This document shows positions 6,104 to 64,000 of a DNA stretch of 64,000 nt, in pieces (positions within the stretch are counted from its first letter, which is position 1; each line of letters opens with the position of its first letter). The position numbers and the translations under genes were made by a program. The stretch is from Winogradskyella sp. (GTDB lineage Bacteria; Bacteroidota; Bacteroidia; Flavobacteriales; Flavobacteriaceae). Below the pieces are notes generated by a model. It saw nothing but the letters and a program-made list of their open reading frames with translations. It did no database searches and was not told the origin of the DNA. The DNA lies in contig NZ_JABDQL010000025.1 of the NCBI RefSeq assembly GCF_013042245.1, positions 97,686 through 161,685 of the forward strand, given 5' to 3'.

Positions 6104-6188
6104 AGTTGGAAGATTTAGATTTTAAACATTTTTTGGTGTTGGGTATTGTCTTTAAAGCTTTCAATTTTCATTGTAACACAGTCCGAAT

Positions 6189-6300
6189 GTCATTCCGACC
6201 GTAGTGGAGGAATCTTACCGGTAAAAAGGAGTGTATGACATTTGACTTGACTACATTTAAGATTTCTCCATTACGCCTATGGCTCCAGTCGAAATGACAG
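6189..6300. repeat. Palindromic intergenic repeat, unit 1
   Basis: The unit opens with GTCATTCCGACCGTAGTGGA and closes with the imperfect reverse complement (CCATTACGCCTATGGCTCCAGTCGAAATGACAG), so it can fold into a long imperfect stem with a ~40-nt loop. Its loop differs from that of units 2 and 4. The 547-base gap 6051-6597 holds the maeB promoter and repeat units 1-3; I see no gene in it. Confidence 0.85.
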
Positions 6301-6346
6301 AACGTTAAAATGATGTTTAGTTTATTAACTCTTAACTTTAATTCTT

Positions 6347-6456
6347 GTCATTCCGACCATAGTGGAGGAATCTTAATGATGAACTAGTGTTCGAAACTTG
6401 ATTCTGCTGAATCTGAGATTTCTCCATTACGCCTATGGCTTCAGTCGAAATGACAG
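6347..6456. repeat. Palindromic intergenic repeat, unit 2
   Basis: Same ends as unit 1 but with the loop AATGATGAACTAGTGTTCGA, which is shared almost exactly with unit 4 at 7081. The bases between units 1-2 (6301-6346) and 2-3 (6457-6502) are also near-identical, so part of this block is a direct duplication with a period of 156 bp. Confidence 0.85.
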
Positions 6457-6502
6457 AACGTTAAAATCACGTTTAATTTATTAACTCTTAACTTTAATTC
6501 TT

Positions 6503-6560
6503 GTCATTCCGACGGAGGTCATTGAGCCTGTCGAAATGCAGCGGAGGAATCTTTAGATGC
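6503..6560. repeat. Palindromic intergenic repeat, unit 3 (rearranged)
   Basis: It begins GTCATTCCGACGG like the other units, then switches to a different inner part (GGTCATTGAGCCTGTCGAAA) before GCGGAGGAATCTTTAGATG. It looks like a composite of two related repeat types and lies just downstream of the GIY-YIG gene. Confidence 0.7.
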
Positions 6561-6597
6561 AACATCGTTAAACCGTAAGGTTCAACGGAGCCAAATC

Positions 6598-6933
6598 TCA
6601 AACTGCATCATTAAGAAACTTCAAAGTTGGATTAAACGATTTAATAAGCTTATCTTTTTTTTCTCGACGCCATCTTTTTAACTGTTTCTCTCTAGCAATA
6701 GCATCTTCAACATCAAAAAAATGCTCATAATAAACCAAGTACTTAAATCTATATTTATGTGTAAAACTCTTCGAGTAGGGTTCTGGATTGTTATGATAGT
6801 AGAGTCTGTCTTTTAAGTTATTGGTCATACCAACATACAATACAGTTTTAGCTTTATTAGTTACAAAATAGACATAATAATTATGTTGGGCTTGGACTTT
6901 TACCATAGCAAAGGTTTTCTGGAACATTATCAA
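6598..6933 (-). CDS. Small GIY-YIG nuclease-family (UvrC N-terminal-like) protein
   Basis: The 111-residue ORF contains a single GIY-YIG domain: YYVYFVTNKAKTVLYVGMTN (the GIY and YIG strands appear as YYVYFV and LYVGMT), the following arginine in LKDRLYYH, and the acidic helix VEDAIAREKQLKRWRREKKDKLI with the conserved glutamate. This is the COG2827/YhbQ-like stand-alone type. Its cellular role is not established in most bacteria. Translation may begin at the first ATG or at Met10 (MVKVQAQHN). The gene is bracketed on both sides by GTCATTCCG.../...TCGAAATGACAG palindromic repeats within a few hundred bases, suggesting that gene and repeats travel or spread together (inference). Confidence 0.85.
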   Translation of the reverse strand: MIMFQKTFAMVKVQAQHNYYVYFVTNKAKTVLYVGMTNNLKDRLYYHNNPEPYSKSFTHKYRFKYLVYYEHFFDVEDAIAREKQLKRWRREKKDKLIKSFNPTLKFLNDAV

Positions 6934-6994
6934 ATATACTCATTAAGGTGTTACAAAAAATTGAGATTCTAGATGAGATTTTGCAACGAAACCT

Positions 6995-7037
6995 GAGATT
7001 TCTCCTTTACGCCTATGGGCTTCAGTCGAAATGACAG
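6995..7037. repeat. Palindromic repeat half-unit upstream of the GIY-YIG gene
   Basis: GAGATTTCTCCTTTACGCCT...CAGTCGAAATGACAG matches the 3' half of units 1 and 2 with one or two changes. The usual 5' half is missing; the bases before it (GAGATTCTAGATGAGATTTT) look like degenerate repeat sequence. Confidence 0.75.
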
Positions 7038-7080
7038 TAGGACTTGGAATGGTAATTTAGTATAAAAATTAATCACTAAT

Positions 7081-7155
7081 GTCATTCCGACCGTAGTGGA
7101 GGAATCTTAATGATGAACTAGTGTTCGAAACTTGATTCTGCTGAATTTGAGATTT
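7081..7155. repeat. Palindromic repeat, unit 4 (3' end lost)
   Basis: This unit repeats the 5' arm GTCATTCCGACCGTAGTGGA and the loop of unit 2 with about one mismatch, then stops at GAGATTTTTT, so the closing arm is missing. It lies between the GIY-YIG gene and the queG stop at 7207. Confidence 0.8.
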
Positions 7156-56881: not shown

Positions 56882-56979
56882 ATTATGAAACGCGCATGCT
56901 AAATATATTATCTCCCAGAGGAATGATTAATAGCGAACAGCATGTGTCCTTAAAAAAACAATACATATAAACACATGAA
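56882..56979 (+). repeat. 99-bp start-codon-linked repeat, copy 1
   Basis: ATTATGAAACGCGCATGCTA ... AACAGCATGTGTCCTTAAAA ... AACACATGAA. The final ATG is the start of the downstream 147-residue gene. It differs from copy 3 at three positions. GCGCATGCT can pair with AGCATGTGT (two GU pairs) around a ~38-nt loop. It contains the 24-codon ORF MLNILSPRGMINSEQHVSLK-KQYI-stop, ending four bases before the gene ATG. Confidence 0.9.
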
Positions 56980-57418
56980 ACAAGCAATTTTAATTATCAG
57001 CACAGTCGTATTATCAGTATTAAACTTAAATGCTACGACTTCAAAAATAAATTTTAACCCTATTAATACAGAAACTGAAATTACAGAGAACCATTTTGCA
57101 AAAATCTACGAATGGTCTGTAAAAACATTAACAGGTAAAAGTTTAGGAATATCCTCTAGTCTTGAAGATGCAAAAGAAATGATAGCCCTTTTTAGTGGTA
57201 ATGAAGCAGTACTTAAGAAAGAGATTACAAGTTATTATGTTCTAAAATCTGAAGCTACAAACTCTAATAACAGAACGTATTATTGGGAAGTAGTCTCTAC
57301 AAACGGAAATGCAAAAGAGCTTTCTTCTTCCGAGAGAGATGCAAAAGAGATGATTAACCTTGTCTCAAACGAAGAAATTATTACCCATAAAATAATTACA
57401 AGCGAAAAAAGAAAGTAA
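56975..57418 (+). CDS. Small exported protein with an internal duplication
   Basis: The 147-residue protein has a signal peptide (AILIISTVVLSVLNLNATTS). Two similar blocks follow: SSLEDAKEMIALFSGNEAVL with KKEITS, and SSERDAKEMINLVSNEEIIT with HKIITS, each preceded by a beta-rich EWSV/WEVVST strand. This looks like a tandem pair of one small fold. No family is recognised. Its ATG is the last part of repeat copy 1, and it lies across from the ECF sigma gene, so sigma control is plausible. It is followed 71 nt later by a lipoprotein gene. Confidence 0.8.
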   Translation: MKQAILIISTVVLSVLNLNATTSKINFNPINTETEITENHFAKIYEWSVKTLTGKSLGISSSLEDAKEMIALFSGNEAVLKKEITSYYVLKSEATNSNNRTYYWEVVSTNGNAKELSSSERDAKEMINLVSNEEIITHKIITSEKRK

Positions 57419-57489
57419 AATCAAAAAACAGGGTAACAAAATAGTTGCCCTGTTGATATAACAATATAAAACACTAAATATTAGAAATC

Positions 57490-58473
57490 ATGAAACAATT
57501 AAAAACAATTTTCGGAACCTTATTAATGACAGCTATTTTATTCACAAGCTGTGAAACATCAGACGATAGTGATGGAGACATCCTTTTTACACCAAGTGCA
57601 CAACAATTTCAAAATTTAAAAGAGAATGCTCGTGAAGTTTTAAAGCAAGATTTTCAGATAACTGTTGAGGATGGTATTACTACGCTAACAACAGATAATG
57701 GTGTAAGTGTAAGCATTAATGGTGCTTGCTTAACAGTAAATGGAAACGCTGCAACCGGTGTTATAGATGTTGAGTTAATAGAAATTTTTGACAAGGCTAA
57801 CATGTTAAAGACAAATAGAAACACTATGGGTGCTTTACCCGGAGGAGATAAAGCTATGCTTTTAACTGGTGGTGAATTTTTGATAGAAGCTTTTCAAAAC
57901 GGAAATACTGTTGATACCAACTGCCCTTTAGAATTACAAATCCCATCAAATCTTACAGGTGGTGATGACCCAGCAATGGAGCTATGGACTGGCACAATTG
58001 ATGAAAATGACAACCTTACTTGGGATGAGATGGAAGGCGGTCCTCAAGGTCTCGGTGGAGAGGTTTTTGCAGAAGGTGGTCAATACTACGCATTTTTTAA
58101 TGACTTTGGATGGAGTAATGTCGATCGTTTTTATAACGACCCAAGGCCTAAAACTACCATATTAGTTGCTCCACCAACTGGTTTTGACAATACTAACAGT
58201 TCTGTATTTATTTCATATGATGGTGAGGATACAGGATTAGCAAATCTAGATACTTATGATACTGGATTAGGATTATTCAGTGAACATTATGGACAAATAC
58301 CTATAGGCTTAGAGTGCCATATCATTTTTGTATCACCAAATGAAACTGGAGGATGGTTATACCATCTTCAAGCGGTGACCATTGCAGCTAATGACCAGAT
58401 TACTTTTAGTTTTGAAAATTTAGTTTCTGGGACAGACGCAGAGTTAACTAGCGCTATAAATGCCCTACCATAA
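57490..58473 (+). CDS. Lipoprotein of unknown function
   Basis: The 327-residue protein has a lipoprotein signal (IFGTLLMTAILFTSCETSDD, lipid Cys at 21) followed by an acidic Asp-rich stretch. The mature part is beta-rich and acidic: DNGVSVSINGACLTVNGNAA, IDVELIEIFDKANMLKTNRN, WTGTIDENDNLTWDEMEGGP and YAFFNDFGWSNVDRFYNDPR. I do not recognise the family with certainty; it looks like a surface-exposed immunoglobulin-like or carbohydrate-binding lipoprotein. It is followed by a strong terminator, which closes the first repeat-led unit. Confidence 0.8.
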   Translation: MKQLKTIFGTLLMTAILFTSCETSDDSDGDILFTPSAQQFQNLKENAREVLKQDFQITVEDGITTLTTDNGVSVSINGACLTVNGNAATGVIDVELIEIFDKANMLKTNRNTMGALPGGDKAMLLTGGEFLIEAFQNGNTVDTNCPLELQIPSNLTGGDDPAMELWTGTIDENDNLTWDEMEGGPQGLGGEVFAEGGQYYAFFNDFGWSNVDRFYNDPRPKTTILVAPPTGFDNTNSSVFISYDGEDTGLANLDTYDTGLGLFSEHYGQIPIGLECHIIFVSPNETGGWLYHLQAVTIAANDQITFSFENLVSGTDAELTSAINALP

Positions 58474-58485
58474 ATCTTAATCCGT

Positions 58486-58519
58486 AAAAGCGGTGGCTAC
58501 TAGTCACCGCTTTTTTTTA
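58486..58519 (+). terminator. Rho-independent terminator
   Basis: AAAAGCGGTG-GCTACTAGT-CACCGCTTTTTTTT: a GC-rich stem and eight T residues, 12 nt after the lipoprotein stop. It ends only about 26 nt before repeat copy 2, leaving little space for a separate promoter outside the repeat. Confidence 0.9.
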
Positions 58520-58545
58520 TCTTTAAATGCAATCAACTCAATATA

Positions 58546-58642
58546 ATTATGAAACGCGCATGCTAAACATATTATCACCCAAAGGAATGATTAATAGCGA
58601 ACAGCATGTGTCTTTAAAAAACAATACATATAAACACATGAA
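58546..58642 (+). repeat. 99-bp start-codon-linked repeat, copy 2 (one base shorter)
   Basis: Nearly identical to copies 1 and 3 but with six instead of seven A residues after GTGTCTTT and one C-to-T change. The missing A removes the stop of the mini-ORF and joins it in frame to the downstream gene (SLKNNTYKHMKTN), which is why the track starts that gene at 58527. The stem GCGCATGCT/AGCATGTGT is intact. Confidence 0.9.
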
Positions 58643-60602
58643 AACTAATGCTTTTGTCTTTGGCCTTCTTTTCTGTTTTACTACGGCATTCTCACAACAA
58701 TCCACTTCTGTAGATTCTATAAAACCTAGAATAGCTTCTATAAATCATACTATAAAAGGAGATAGTCTATCCTTAAGTGCCATAACACCACAATTACAAC
58801 AAATCGCAGGAGCTCCAAAAGCATTTTACACCTATTACTGGGAAATGGGTGATGGTAATTTTAGTAAAGAAAAAAAACCTAAACACGTCTATAAAGACAA
58901 AGGTGATTATGAAGTAAAATTATGGGTTACCAATAATTACGATACTGGAAAACCACCTGTGAGTCGTCCAAAAAAAATAAGCATTTCTAATAACGCTGAA
59001 AACTATGAAGCTCAAGCATCAATGCCTGAAGATTTTACTTTACAGCGTAACAGAGAACCTGTACCAGATGAAGAGATGGTAGTAGTTATGAGTTATAAAA
59101 ATGAAAATGACTTTATTACTGACGGAAAACTCTTTTTGTTTTACAACGAACAAAAATATACTGCTGATAATTTTGAACTTACAGATACTCGTGTTCATAA
59201 CAGTGAACAAGAAGTATTTAATCAAGATATTGTTTACAACACACCAAAAGATAATTTTGAAGGCACATTATTAGCTTTAACTGATAACAAAGGAGTATTA
59301 AATTTATATCAAAAACAACAAGACTCTACAAAGAAAACGGACTTGGCTTTAACTTTAAAAGAGTCTAATGAATACTTTAAAAATTCTAAAGTTTTAGAAT
59401 TTAAAAATATGGAGCCGCAAGAAGAGCGCAATGTCTTTTTCTCACTAAAAACAACACCAGAAATGCTTAAAGACACAAGCGCTATAATTTCTGTTAGAGG
59501 TGTTTATATTCCAGATTCTAATTATAGCAATCATACTGTAAAAGAAATGGAGATGGAAATTGTGACTTCTCACGATCCTAATAAAATGTCTAGTAACGGC
59601 ACGTTCCTAAATTATAGATTAGTTCGTTTTAAAACCCTGAAATATAAGATAAAATTTCAGAATAACGGTGAAGGTCCAGCTCGTAAAATTAGACTAGAAT
59701 CGGATATTCCTGAGATGTTAGATGAACAGACAATTGAAGTTATTGACATGTATCCTAAAGTAAAAATATGTCCGAAGCTAGAGATACAATATAGCTGCTT
59801 AGACACTACTTTTACTAACCAACAAGCTATATTCACCTTCAAAAATATTTACCTTCCCGGGAGCGAACAAAAAAATGTTAAGGAATACGATTCTACCAAA
59901 GGCTTCGTGACGTATAAAATTAAATTCTCGAAGGACTTCCACAAGAAAAAGACTAAAAGTAGAACTGCCATAATTTTCGATAAAAACGAACCTATAATTA
60001 CCAATTATTCGACAACACGATTTTTGCCAGGTATATCTATTGGTACAAAAGCAGGTTATAATTATTTTCCTGATTTAGTTGACTCTAAAAGTTACTTTTT
60101 TGGTGCTACGATTTCCCCCTATAAATCTTACCGGTGGTATTGGCAGGTAGAGCTTTTAAATAGTTTTCATAATTATGATTCTCAGACAACAATAACTGAA
60201 GATATTATTGGTCAAGCACAAGGCTTTGAACAATTGCAACGTACTACAGCCACCTCAAGTTTTCAGAATATAGATTGGGAAATTCCTATTTTAGTTAGAT
60301 ATAATCTCAATAACTACTTTGGTTTAGGTGTTGGCATAAATACCATGATATCCCTTAACGAAAAAAGAGAAGAATCGCTTTTTATAGAACGTTTTGAAGG
60401 AACAAATCCGCAAGCTCCAATTGTTGAGACACTAAATACATCTTCTGATTTTTCGGATTCGTTTACAAATTTCAGAACAGGCTTATTGATGGAAATCACA
60501 GGAGGTTTTGCTCGTATTGGCCCAAGCTTCGGCGCACGCTATGTCTATAATTTTAAAGACAATTTTAATTACATCCAATTGTATGGTATTTGGAAGTTCT
60601 AA
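58638..60602 (+). CDS. Exported PKD-domain protein with C-terminal outer-membrane barrel
   Basis: I start the gene at 58638, where the repeat ends and a signal peptide begins (MKTNAFVFGLLFCFTTAFSQ), giving 654 residues; the track's extra 37 residues are repeat sequence. A PKD domain lies at ~45-115 (YTYYWEMGDGNFSKEKKPKH, VYKDKGDYEVKLWVTN). A DUF11/adhesin-like Ig region follows (LKYKIKFQNNGEGPARKIRL), then a likely beta-barrel of ~200 residues (SIGTKAGYNYFPDLVDSKSY, FRTGLLMEITGGFARIGPSF) ending in YIQLYGIWKF. It should span the outer membrane and expose or project the PKD part. It is the first gene of the PKD-CHAT-protease operon, 18 nt before the CHAT gene. Confidence 0.82.
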   Translation: MKTNAFVFGLLFCFTTAFSQQSTSVDSIKPRIASINHTIKGDSLSLSAITPQLQQIAGAPKAFYTYYWEMGDGNFSKEKKPKHVYKDKGDYEVKLWVTNNYDTGKPPVSRPKKISISNNAENYEAQASMPEDFTLQRNREPVPDEEMVVVMSYKNENDFITDGKLFLFYNEQKYTADNFELTDTRVHNSEQEVFNQDIVYNTPKDNFEGTLLALTDNKGVLNLYQKQQDSTKKTDLALTLKESNEYFKNSKVLEFKNMEPQEERNVFFSLKTTPEMLKDTSAIISVRGVYIPDSNYSNHTVKEMEMEIVTSHDPNKMSSNGTFLNYRLVRFKTLKYKIKFQNNGEGPARKIRLESDIPEMLDEQTIEVIDMYPKVKICPKLEIQYSCLDTTFTNQQAIFTFKNIYLPGSEQKNVKEYDSTKGFVTYKIKFSKDFHKKKTKSRTAIIFDKNEPIITNYSTTRFLPGISIGTKAGYNYFPDLVDSKSYFFGATISPYKSYRWYWQVELLNSFHNYDSQTTITEDIIGQAQGFEQLQRTTATSSFQNIDWEIPILVRYNLNNYFGLGVGINTMISLNEKREESLFIERFEGTNPQAPIVETLNTSSDFSDSFTNFRTGLLMEITGGFARIGPSFGARYVYNFKDNFNYIQLYGIWKF

Positions 60603-60620
60603 ATTATTTCAAAGTTTTAA

Positions 60621-63206
60621 ATGAAACATTTTCTCTTTCTCTTTTTTATTTTAAGCATCTCTCTTTGCTTTTCTCAATCTTTGGAAGAAAAGATTTATGC
60701 ATCAACAGAACAGTTTTACAGTGAACCAAATCATAAAAACCTACAAGTTTTAAATACTGAAATTGCTAGTTTTGAACCTCAATTAAAAACTAAAGACGAA
60801 TATTTTGCCTTTATAAATCTTATTATAAATAAAGCCTACTATTTGGCTGAACATAACACTCAAGATAAAGCTATTTCAGCATATGAAAAAGCATACAAAA
60901 TCTATTTAAAAAATCAGGTTTTTAGCTATGATATAGTTGAGTATTGTTTAATTCCGCTAGGTGTTCTTTATCATAAAAGCAATGCTTATATAAAAGCTGA
61001 AAATATTATAAAACATTATATAACACTTGCTATAAAACAAGGTAATGTATCACAACAAATTTCAGGTAGTATCAATCTGGCATTGCTTTACCAATCTTTG
61101 AACAGGCATCAAAGCGTGATTTCTATAGTAGACAAAACATTACTTGGTTTTAAAGACATAAAAAAAAATCAAGAACAACGCCTTAATAGCATAAAAAAAA
61201 GAAGTTTACTATTAATAGAAAGCAATCAAGAAAAATTGTTATTAGATAATGATGTAATTTTTAATTCTCAAGATGATTCTGAAATTTTAGACTTAAAATA
61301 TAGGACAGCACTGCAGAATAGGGATTACTCCAAAGCGTATAACTACTTCAATCGTATAAAAAATAAAAGTCTCGTAAATAATTTGATATCAAAAAGAGAG
61401 CTAGCAAAACTTAGTTTTCAAGAAGCACAATTATTTTATCTACTAAACAGAGCTGACAAAGCTCATAAAGAGTTATATAATACACTCTCACTACTTATTC
61501 CTAGCTTTAGAAGCAACCAATCACTTACTGAAAATGATTTGTATCCCGAAAATATTTTTATCGATGTGTTTGATTTATTGGCTACGATAGAAACTACTCC
61601 CGAAAATAAACTACTAAATTATAATCTTAGTTTCTATGTTACATCACTATTAAATAAAGAAAACACAAACGAAGAGAGCCTTATAATTAGCGCTAGTGCA
61701 AATAGGACTAGAGCAGAGAATTGTATAGAAATTCTTTATCAATTATATATAAAAGAAAACAATACAGACTTCATACAACGTGCTTTAAACTTTGCAGAGC
61801 AGTATAAAGCCTCTATCTTAAAAACCAATTCTCAACGAAAATCATTTCTTCAAAAATATGGTAAGATAGACTCAACACTCATAAGAGAAGATCTTCTTTT
61901 AAAAGAACAAAAACAATTAACCAATAGGCTTCTAAGCGGTACTTCTAACACAGATTATCTAAAAAGACAAGATAGTATTAGATCCCGTTTAATAGGTATA
62001 AGTGTAGAGTTGAAGTCACTTCAAAACGTGATTGAACAGACTTATAAAATTGGCATTAATAAAACAATCTCTCTAACAGATATAACGTCTAAACTTAACG
62101 ACACAAAAAAAGCTGTTATACAATATTTCTATGGAAAAAAAGCAATTTATCAATTTGTATTCACTGAAACAAATTATGGCTTTAATGAAATACCTGTAGG
62201 AGCGTCTACAAATCAAAAAATCATTGATTTTATAAGCTATTTTAATGATGTTTCAAAAATCAATTCAGACATCTCAATATTTACAGAAGATGCCTTTTAC
62301 ATATATAATTTACTAAAATTTGATGCAGTTAAAAGCTTTGAAGAAGTGGTAATAATCCCAGATGGATTAATGAGTTTTATTCCTTTTGAGACGCTATTAA
62401 ACTCAAAAACTACTTCCACTTCATTTGCCAAAATGCCTTTTGTTATTAAAAGTCAGTCTTTGGAATATAACACAAGCCTTCAGTTTTATTTGAACAACAG
62501 AACTGAAAGATTAGAAGACAAATTACTCGGTATGTTTCCAGTATTTAAAAATTCTAATCAAGAGCTTACATATACTAAAAATGAAGCCGAAGAAATTAAA
62601 AGTAAAATATCTTCAAAACTTTTAATGTATGAACATGCTACAAGAGTAAATTTTTTAAATCAAATGAAAAACTATTCTGTATTGCACCTCTCAACACATG
62701 CTTCTTCAGGAGATTTTTTAAATCCTGCTAACATCTCATTTTATGATACCGAATTATCGGTAAACGAACTTTATGATTTAGATATAAACCCCAATTTAGT
62801 TGTGCTTAGTGCTTGCGAGACTGGCGTTGGAAAAGTACTTAAAGGTGAAGGTGTTATGAGTATTGCAAGAGGGTTTCAGTATGCGGGTGCAGAAAATACT
62901 TTGTTCTCTCTATGGCAAATTAATGATTTAAGTACTTCTAAGATTATGACTTCATTTTATAAGTATTACGCAAGTGGAAAGACTGCTACTTTTTCCAATA
63001 GTCAATCAAAAATAGATTACTTAAGTAATAGAGAAGTTAGTAATGCAAAAAAATCGCCTTATTATTGGGGTGCTTTTGTTTTTTATGGAGATGTACCAGA
63101 GTTAAAACCTAATAAGCAAACGTATTATTTATTGACTCTTGGCATATTAGCTTTGTTAATAGTCGTATTTTTAATTCTTAAAATTTTTAGTAAAAATGCA
63201 AGCTAA
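60621..63206 (+). CDS. Exported TPR-CHAT caspase-like protease with C-terminal membrane anchor
   Basis: The 861-residue protein has a signal peptide (FLFLFFILSISLCFSQ), a long helical TPR-type region (~25-450), a coiled linker, and a CHAT domain. The catalytic dyad is intact: His in VLHLSTHASSGDFL near 685 and Cys in VVLSACETGVGKVLKGEGVM near 729, with the following FQYAGAENTLFSLWQINDLS. After the domain a transmembrane helix (LLTLGILALLIVVFLILKIF near 835) and a short basic tail place the protease in the periplasm, fixed to the inner membrane. CHAT proteases are caspase/separase relatives. Its stop overlaps the aspartic protease start by 11 nt. Confidence 0.9.
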   Translation: MKHFLFLFFILSISLCFSQSLEEKIYASTEQFYSEPNHKNLQVLNTEIASFEPQLKTKDEYFAFINLIINKAYYLAEHNTQDKAISAYEKAYKIYLKNQVFSYDIVEYCLIPLGVLYHKSNAYIKAENIIKHYITLAIKQGNVSQQISGSINLALLYQSLNRHQSVISIVDKTLLGFKDIKKNQEQRLNSIKKRSLLLIESNQEKLLLDNDVIFNSQDDSEILDLKYRTALQNRDYSKAYNYFNRIKNKSLVNNLISKRELAKLSFQEAQLFYLLNRADKAHKELYNTLSLLIPSFRSNQSLTENDLYPENIFIDVFDLLATIETTPENKLLNYNLSFYVTSLLNKENTNEESLIISASANRTRAENCIEILYQLYIKENNTDFIQRALNFAEQYKASILKTNSQRKSFLQKYGKIDSTLIREDLLLKEQKQLTNRLLSGTSNTDYLKRQDSIRSRLIGISVELKSLQNVIEQTYKIGINKTISLTDITSKLNDTKKAVIQYFYGKKAIYQFVFTETNYGFNEIPVGASTNQKIIDFISYFNDVSKINSDISIFTEDAFYIYNLLKFDAVKSFEEVVIIPDGLMSFIPFETLLNSKTTSTSFAKMPFVIKSQSLEYNTSLQFYLNNRTERLEDKLLGMFPVFKNSNQELTYTKNEAEEIKSKISSKLLMYEHATRVNFLNQMKNYSVLHLSTHASSGDFLNPANISFYDTELSVNELYDLDINPNLVVLSACETGVGKVLKGEGVMSIARGFQYAGAENTLFSLWQINDLSTSKIMTSFYKYYASGKTATFSNSQSKIDYLSNREVSNAKKSPYYWGAFVFYGDVPELKPNKQTYYLLTLGILALLIVVFLILKIFSKNAS

Positions 63207-63639
63207 CCTTAAAGACTTTTTGATTGAAAAAGGCTATTGTAAAATAAAACTGAAACTTACAAAAACTAATCATTTTGAAATAAAAGCATCTATTAATGGT
63301 ATAAAAGGTCGTTTTATTTTAGATACTGGTGCATCTAGTAGTTGCGTAGGTTTTGAGGCTATAGAACAATTTAAACTTAAAGTCGTGGATTCTGAAATTA
63401 AAGCTGTAGGTGCAGGTGCTTCTAACATGACCACTAAACTTTCAAAATCTAATATCATAAAAATTGGCAAATGGAAAAAGCAACGTATTGCCTTAATTCT
63501 ATTTAATCTAACACATGTTAACGAAGGTTTAATTAATCACAACTCAAATGCTGTTGATGGCATTATTGGCGCCGATATTTTAAAAAAAGGAAAAGCAATA
63601 ATTGACTATAATAAAAAATATTTATATTTAAAACTATGA
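63196..63639 (+). CDS. Retropepsin-like clan AA aspartic protease
   Basis: The 147-residue protein has one aspartic-protease half: the active-site motif RFILDTGASSSCVGFEAIEQ near 36-55, the flap region SEIKAVGAGASNMTTKLSKS and the hydrophobic-hydrophobic-Gly VDGIIGADILKKGKAIIDYN near 121. Such proteins act as homodimers, as retroviral proteases do. No signal peptide is seen, so it may be cytosolic, unlike the CHAT protein it overlaps by 11 nt. The tight coupling implies a joint function. Confidence 0.9.
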   Translation: MQANLKDFLIEKGYCKIKLKLTKTNHFEIKASINGIKGRFILDTGASSSCVGFEAIEQFKLKVVDSEIKAVGAGASNMTTKLSKSNIIKIGKWKKQRIALILFNLTHVNEGLINHNSNAVDGIIGADILKKGKAIIDYNKKYLYLKL

Positions 63640-63677
63640 TTTTCAATTATTTAACAACTAAACAACACTAAAATTAC

Positions 63678-63697
63678 GTATTTATACGTATAAATAC
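63678..63697. repeat. Perfect 20-bp palindrome
   Basis: GTATTTATACGTATAAATAC equals its own reverse complement. It lies 38 nt after the aspartic protease stop and 66 nt before repeat copy 3. It has no T-run after it, so it looks more like an operator for a dimeric regulator than a terminator. Confidence 0.6.
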
Positions 63698-63762
63698 TTC
63701 AACTAAAATTTGGAATTTTACTAATGCTAACAAAGTCAATTATATCGCAGAATATGTTTTGG

Positions 63763-63860
63763 ATTATGAAACGCGCATGCTAAACATATTATCACCCAAA
63801 GGAATGATTAATAGCGAACAGCATGTGTCCTTAAAAAAACAATACATATAAACACATGAA
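63763..63860 (+). repeat. 99-bp start-codon-linked repeat, copy 3
   Basis: ATTATGAAACGCGCATGCTA through AACACATGAA, three substitutions from copy 1 and one substitution plus one A from copy 2. The bases before (GTTTTGG) and after (CAATAACAAC) differ from the other copies, so the repeat borders are sharp at ATTATG and ATGAA. Confidence 0.9.
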
Positions 63861-63900
63861 CAATAACAACAGTAAAATATGGCTATATTCTATAATATGA
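63856..63900 (+). pseudogene. Truncated reading frame after repeat copy 3
   Basis: The ATG at the end of the repeat opens MNNNNSKIWLYSII-stop, 14 codons. It looks like the start of a signal peptide or membrane protein that is cut off; the following ORF at 63936 may belong to an inserted element. It may also be an authentic short peptide. Confidence 0.4.
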
Positions 63901-63935
63901 CTTAAATAAGTTGTATTTTAGTAAAAACGAAAGTC

Positions 63936-64000
63936 ATGATACCACAAAATTTCACAGAATACTTCAAAAGCCTCGAATTATTTGAGCGACAGGAAATAGT
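63936..64000 (+). CDS. Start of an unidentified ORF, runs off the right edge
   Basis: ATG at 63936 opens MIPQNFTEYFKSLELFERQE and continues past the window end. The amphipathic start resembles N-termini of some transposases (for example the IS1595 group), but 21 residues are not enough to decide. Confidence 0.4.
   Translation, partial: MIPQNFTEYFKSLELFERQEI

What the first reader, a model, noticed from the sequence alone, without database searches (positions are those of the whole stretch)
56882..63860. Three near-identical 99-bp repeats fused to start codons: a new leader/promoter cassette
Copies at 56882, 58546 and 63763 begin sharply at ATTATGAAACG and end at the ATGAA of a gene; flanks on both sides are unrelated. 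Only four substitutions and one indel separate them across about 7 kb. Each can form a 9-bp stem GCGCATGCT/AGCATGTGT. Repeats whose right border is exactly a translation start are not ordinary intergenic repeats and suggest a regulatory leader copied onto several genes. I know of no named element like this.
Basis: partly seen in the sequence, partly recalled or inferred. Interest (0 to 1): 0.88.

Follow-up and report, generated by a model that had tools for sequence, protein, structure and literature searches.

The report
Tiny mobile elements targeting start codons
The repeat is one member of an apparently undescribed family of roughly 90-bp mobile DNA elements, found across the Flavobacteriaceae, that insert exactly into the start codon of genes, leave a start codon on each side, and hold the new start codon in a conserved hairpin.

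Summary
The repeats and their sharp right border are real, but the third window copy is not at a gene and the proposed 9-bp stem is not the conserved structure. The unit is a mobile element of about 90 nt that inserts at the pentamer ATGAA, so every copy is ATGAA-[~90 nt]-ATGAA; tandem copies overlap by exactly 5 nt. Orthologous empty and filled sites at hemH and nadK show insertion precisely at the start codon. The window's genome has at least 42 copies; 59 of 161 sampled Flavobacteriaceae genomes have the family. Young copies sit at gene starts in 64-80% of cases (about 40% expected), older ones in 58 of 62. The family's best-supported structure pairs internal CATGTG with terminal CACATG, which contains the restored start codon, with compensatory changes. 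At orthologous sites the original ATGAA and CATGTG are constrained. There are no terminal inverted repeats, no transposase and no Rfam match; Y1 and IS110 transposases are each absent from some high-copy genomes. I read it as a non-autonomous mobile element that tolerates start-codon insertion by recreating the start and becoming a structured translational leader. The mobilising enzyme and the translation mechanism are inferred, not shown.

The parts
56885..56979 (+). Element copy 1, from the left ATGAA (56885-56889, presumed original start codon) to the right ATGAA (56975-56979), start of a 147-aa ORF
56892..56900 (+).
   Evidence: folds in this copy; no covariation across 70 copies
56941..56946 (+). 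Internal CATGTG (5' side of the start-codon hairpin P2), copy 1
56972..56977 (+). Terminal CACATG (3' side of P2), containing the start codon 56975-56977, copy 1
58549..58642 (+). Element copy 2; left ATGAA 58549-58553, right ATGAA 58638-58642 = start of a 654-aa PKD/DUF7619/DUF7849 protein; P2 = 58605-58610 with 58635-58640
63766..63860 (+). Element copy 3; left ATGAA 63766-63770, right ATGAA 63856-63860; not at a gene start; P2 = 63822-63827 with 63853-63858

Best explanation
The repeat is a copy of a family of roughly 90-nt non-autonomous mobile elements of Flavobacteriaceae. SHOWN: each copy lies between two ATGAA pentamers; orthologous loci exist with one ATGAA (empty) and with ATGAA-element-ATGAA (filled); tandem copies share one ATGAA. 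Insertion is therefore site-specific at ATGAA and, at a gene start, duplicates the start codon: the original ATG stays at the left and an intact ATG is recreated at the right. SHOWN by covariation: P2 pairs CATNNG with the terminal CNNATG, which contains the restored start codon, throughout the family; in the C type a second stem P1 pairs the left end (for example AACATCC) with GGATGTT, one nt before P2, so that one internal strand splints both ends together. INFERRED: the splint is the signal for mobility (the joined ends fold into a short duplex recognised by an unidentified, trans-supplied enzyme). INFERRED: copies at start codons survive because the A-rich right end supplies a new translation start region, and the element then serves as a structured leader in which ribosomes still load at the original AUG, make a short peptide (most often 5, 4, 13 or 2 codons) and reach the hairpin-held second AUG by reinitiation or a short jump.
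For: Empty and filled hemH and nadK sites. At least 42 own copies on both strands with unrelated left flanks. Tandem copies overlapping by exactly 5 nt in several genomes. 59 of 161 family genomes positive, and about 20 near-identical copies in G066. P2 is 98.8% paired in 70 copies, 0 of 500 shuffles as good, and 98.9% across the family with 13 both-side changes; P1+P2 covary in C-type copies and are the predicted fold of C and D types. The internal strand matches 12-14 of 15 nt of the joined ends in C and D types, in nearly all cases with 0 of 200 shuffles as good. Gene-start location 18/28, 16/20 and 58/62 against about 40% background. At 10 orthologous sites the left ATGAA varies in 1 of 50 columns and CATGTG in 4 of 60, against 87 of 490 in the loops (p 0.001 and 0.016).
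Against: No mobilising enzyme was found. The commonest A type has little of P1 left, and its predicted single-sequence fold uses the left-arm alternative rather than P2. A uORF of 5 codons stops too far upstream for a terminating ribosome to open P2 directly. Some nadK copies have decayed strongly (L167, L168, L175), so the leader role is not essential. The tests for constraint use few sites, and old copies were found by similarity, which favours conserved ones. No expression data were available.
Confidence: 0.72

Rival explanations
1. A pure parasite: random insertion at ATGAA with purging from coding sequence; its location at gene starts has no function.
For: About 40% of ATGAA outside coding sequence are gene starts anyway; young own-genome copies are only modestly enriched (18/28); decayed nadK copies exist.
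Against: 58 of 62 older copies are at gene starts; G066 16/20 (p 4e-4); the original ATGAA and CATGTG are constrained at orthologous sites.
Confidence: 0.3
2. An IS110-derived miniature element mobilised by IS110 transposase with a bridge RNA; the self-complementary splint would be its donor guide.
For: The own-genome IS110 element appears to be bounded by ATGAA on both sides, and all 7 of its left ends sit directly behind an element copy; C-type left ends resemble an apparent IS110-deletion derivative (ATGAAACATCCATG).
Against: No IS110 transposase at E<=0.01 in G203, G131, G149, G184, G171 or G130, all with many copies; none of this subgroup at E<=1e-10 in 37 congeners. More likely IS110 uses the element as its target.
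Confidence: 0.12
3. An IS200/IS605 or REP/RAYT-type element mobilised by a Y1 transposase (single-stranded DNA, hairpin ends, specific pentamer, no target duplication).
For: Hairpins near both ends (C and D types), a fixed pentamer at both borders and no inverted repeats fit this style of mobility.
Against: Y1 genes are absent from G203 and G131 and from many element-bearing congeners; Y1 genes found are not flanked by element ends.
Confidence: 0.12
4. A regulatory leader (riboswitch or attenuator) spread onto a set of genes to co-regulate them.
For: Same-sense location before genes, conserved start-codon hairpin, constraint in place.
Against: No Rfam match; unrelated target genes; copies away from genes; no shared upstream promoter because left flanks differ.
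Confidence: 0.08

Closest known systems
REP / RAYT and IS200/IS605-derived palindromic elements
   Same: Small, dispersed, hairpin-forming, no inverted terminal repeats, fixed border sequence
   Different: Tied to ATGAA and start codons, no Y1 partner in some high-copy genomes, both ends paired to one internal strand (C and D types)
Classical MITEs (DDE transposon derivatives)
   Same: About 100 bp, non-autonomous, high copy number, empty sites found
   Different: No terminal inverted repeats; the shared flank is always ATGAA, not a random target duplication
Rickettsia palindromic elements
   Same: Small palindromic repeats that insert at genes and are tolerated
   Different: Those lie inside reading frames and are translated (from general knowledge); this one sits at the start codon and recreates it
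Mobile translational bypass elements of yeast mitochondria (from general knowledge)
   Same: Short mobile insert with matching codons on both sides, tolerated because the ribosome gets past it
   Different: Here the duplicated codon is the start codon and no jump has been shown
IS110 family with bridge RNA
   Same: Uses an RNA complementary to the joined element ends (general knowledge); the own-genome IS110 is ATGAA-bounded
   Different: No transposase in many element-rich genomes; the complement here is contiguous on one strand

Membership tests
Classical MITE | Terminal inverted repeats | tested here: not met
   Ends ACGMGC... and ...AAACAC are not inverted copies
Classical MITE | Evidence of insertion (empty versus filled orthologous sites) | tested here: met
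   hemH and nadK loci
IS200/IS605 or REP-RAYT derived | Y1 transposase partner in genomes with many copies | tested here: not met
   None in G203 (at least 26 copies) or G131 (12)
IS200/IS605 or REP-RAYT derived | Longer relative carrying a transposase between the same ends | tested here: inconclusive
   No Y1 gene flanked by the ends; no long form in 395 kb of G066; whole genomes not scanned
IS110-derived | IS110 transposase partner in genomes with many copies | tested here: not met
   Absent at E<=0.01 from six high-copy genomes
Known cis-regulatory RNA (Rfam) | Match to a curated family | tested here: not met
Structured RNA or ssDNA element (generic) | Covariation-supported structure | tested here: met
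   P2; P1+P2
Mobile translational bypass element | Ribosome skips the insert | not testable with these tools
   No ribosome profiling or proteome data

The most novel reading that the evidence does not exclude
A new class of mobile element whose target is the translation start codon itself and whose folded RNA brings the original and the recreated AUG together, so that ribosomes loaded at the host's own start site pass to the new one and the insertion is nearly silent: a mobile start-codon shunt.
Probability: 0.22. Interest if true: 0.95.

Novelty: new variant of a known kind. Interest (0 to 1): 0.8.

Why it matters
It shows a mobile element that treats the start codon as its insertion site, in a large environmental family of bacteria, and that has become the leader of housekeeping genes such as hemH, nadK and dapB. 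It would account for some long 5' leaders in these genomes, confound start-codon annotation (two in-context ATGs about 90 nt apart), and offer a natural system for testing how ribosomes deal with a hairpin-locked start codon. The missing mobiliser is an open, directly testable question.

Tried and rejected
(1) Leader peptide MLNILSPKGMINSEQHVSLKKQYI* inside the repeat: read directly in the window copies, but not kept in relatives, where indels and stops break it and most differences from the genus consensus change the amino acid (by eye; no formal dN/dS run). (3) Inner hairpin TTATCA/TGATTAA: no covariation. (4) Y1 partner. (5) IS110 partner. (6) Phage or plasmid carriage: none. (7) A long autonomous version in 395 kb of G066: none; only a solitary 20-nt right end at a gene start. 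(8) A Bacteroidetes promoter motif in the element: none seen by eye; the planned scripted scan did not run because the script stopped early, so this is untested. (10) A regex scan timed out and was replaced by BLAST.

Full report
WHAT IS THERE. The three copies are as described, with four substitutions and one indel among them, but the repeat begins with its own ATGAA: ATT-ATGAA-ACGCGC...AAACAC-ATGAA. Copies 1 and 2 end at start codons of ORFs (56975, 58638); copy 3 ends at an ATGAA with no gene, and an apparent IS left end follows at 63881. The window lies on contig C99 of a draft genome of 2.58 Mb, 154 contigs, 86% complete.

HOW MANY. The own genome has at least 42 copies on both strands. 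40 of 60 relatives had a hit at the permissive cut-off E <= 0.1, with nearly all strong hits in the same genus. A pattern scan of named genomes hit Lacinutrix himadriensis, so the genus is Lacinutrix or close to it. None was found in phage, plasmid or viral-contig collections.

IT IS MOBILE. hemH: empty site in G005 '...actgaaataaattcagc|ATGAAAGGAATTTTATT', filled in G029 '...actgaaataaattcagc|ATGAAACGAGCATG...AAACGC|ATGAAAGGAATTTTATT'. nadK: empty in several species '...taaatacctaaatatgtaatg|ATGAA', filled in G002, G034, G011 and others; heavily altered inserts at the same place in G018, G031 and G003, which I read as decayed copies. Tandem copies overlap by exactly the five bases ATGAA in C10 and C75 of the own genome and in G014, G032, G149, G073, G168 and G195 (the sequence of the overlap was read for the copies fetched). 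Left flanks are unrelated even among about 20 near-identical copies in G066.

WHERE IT SITS. Among ATGAA pentamers outside coding sequence about 40% are gene starts by a simple ORF caller (G066 71 of 171; window 15 of 38). Own-genome copies: 18 of 28 scorable at an ORF of at least 60 aa (one search gives 17 of 27; the copy at 56975 was wrongly excluded by the script and is added here). G066: 16 of 20 (counted by hand; the scripted count failed to match the copies; p). Older copies in congeners: 58 of 62. Targets include hemH, nadK, dapB, xth, and genes whose starts read like aroQ, metF and pyruvate carboxylase (by eye); no common theme. So insertion at ATGAA plus loss from coding sequence accounts for much of the pattern in young copies, with mild enrichment, while long-term survival is strongly tied to gene starts.

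STRUCTURE. RNAalifold pointed to CATGTG pairing with the terminal CACATG. On 70 copies this hairpin is paired in 98.8% of cells with 0 of 500 shuffles as good; across the family 98.9%, 13 cells with changes on both sides (that alignment was fitted to this structure, which favours it). Versions include CATGTG/CACATG, CATCTG/CAGATG, CATAGG/CCTATG and CATATG/CATATG. In the C type a second stem, left end AACATCC with GGATGTT, covaries too (AACACCC/GGGTGTT, AACGCCC/GGGCGTT, eight sequences). Predicted folds of C and D types are two hairpins one nt apart, with ATGA before and AA after. Equivalently, one internal stretch is the reverse complement of the joined ends: 12-14 of 15 positions in C and D types, nearly always 0 of 200 shuffles as good.

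CONSTRAINT. At ten sites shared by two or more species, variable columns: left ATGAA 1 of 50, CATGTG 4 of 60, right ATGAA 0 of 50, loops and A-rich tail 87 of 490 (Fisher p 0.001, 0.016, 1e-4). Where CAC varies (CGC, TAC, CAT), pairing is kept by wobble in most rows: 25 of 28 rows have all six pairs. The left end arm is not significantly constrained there (9 of 70, p 0.2), as expected if it serves mobility only. The original start codon therefore seems still to be used after insertion. In 142 aligned copies the frame from the left ATG nearly always stops inside the element, most often after 5, 4, 13 or 2 codons.

WHO MOVES IT. Not known. Y1 transposases are missing in two element-rich genomes and are not flanked by its ends elsewhere. 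IS110 transposases are missing in six. The own genome's IS110 appears bounded by ATGAA, and all seven of its left ends lie directly behind an element copy, so IS110 probably uses the element as a landing site.

KNOWN OR NEW. No Rfam family. Full-text searches of the open library and two reviews of small mobile elements (PMC10969869, PMC2229807) turned up no start-codon-targeting element; subscription papers and preprints were not searchable, so absence from the literature is not proven. I file it as a new variant within the broad kind 'small non-autonomous mobile repeats', since every specific family considered failed a defining test.

LIMITS.

Noticed in passing
L150, L152, L155 and other congener loci: A Y1 transposase-like (RAYT-like) domain is fused in frame to the N-terminus of what reads as an aerobic coproporphyrinogen III oxidase (HemF), 492-532 aa, in about ten congeners. 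The HemF identification is by eye, not by a domain search.
   Followed up: partly
window 63881-64000; L040: Left end of an apparent IS (GGCTATATTCTATAATATGAC..., ORF MIPQNFTEYFKSLELFERQEI...) inserted 20 nt behind copy 3 and into another element copy.
   Followed up: partly
L030 minus strand; L002, L003, L006, L015, L018, L020: IS110-family element whose seven left ends all follow an element copy directly; L004 and L038 carry a related sequence that looks like a deletion derivative.
   Followed up: partly
window 60621-63639: CHAT-domain protein (PF12770) followed by a retropepsin-like aspartyl protease (PF13650), overlapping by a few bases.
   Followed up: no
window 6186-7155: A second, different dispersed repeat (TGTCATTCCGACC...GGAATCTTA) in three partial copies.
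   Followed up: no
L228, L229, L231 upstream of a D-lactate dehydrogenase-like gene: Longer, diverged insert at the same kind of site (ATGAAGCGAG...TTAGTAGTGAACGG...AACAGATGAA), perhaps a further subfamily.
   Followed up: no
L342, L343 (G149): Element copies carrying an extra short CCTG...GGCAGGCAG insertion inside the internal strand, in more than one copy.
   Followed up: no
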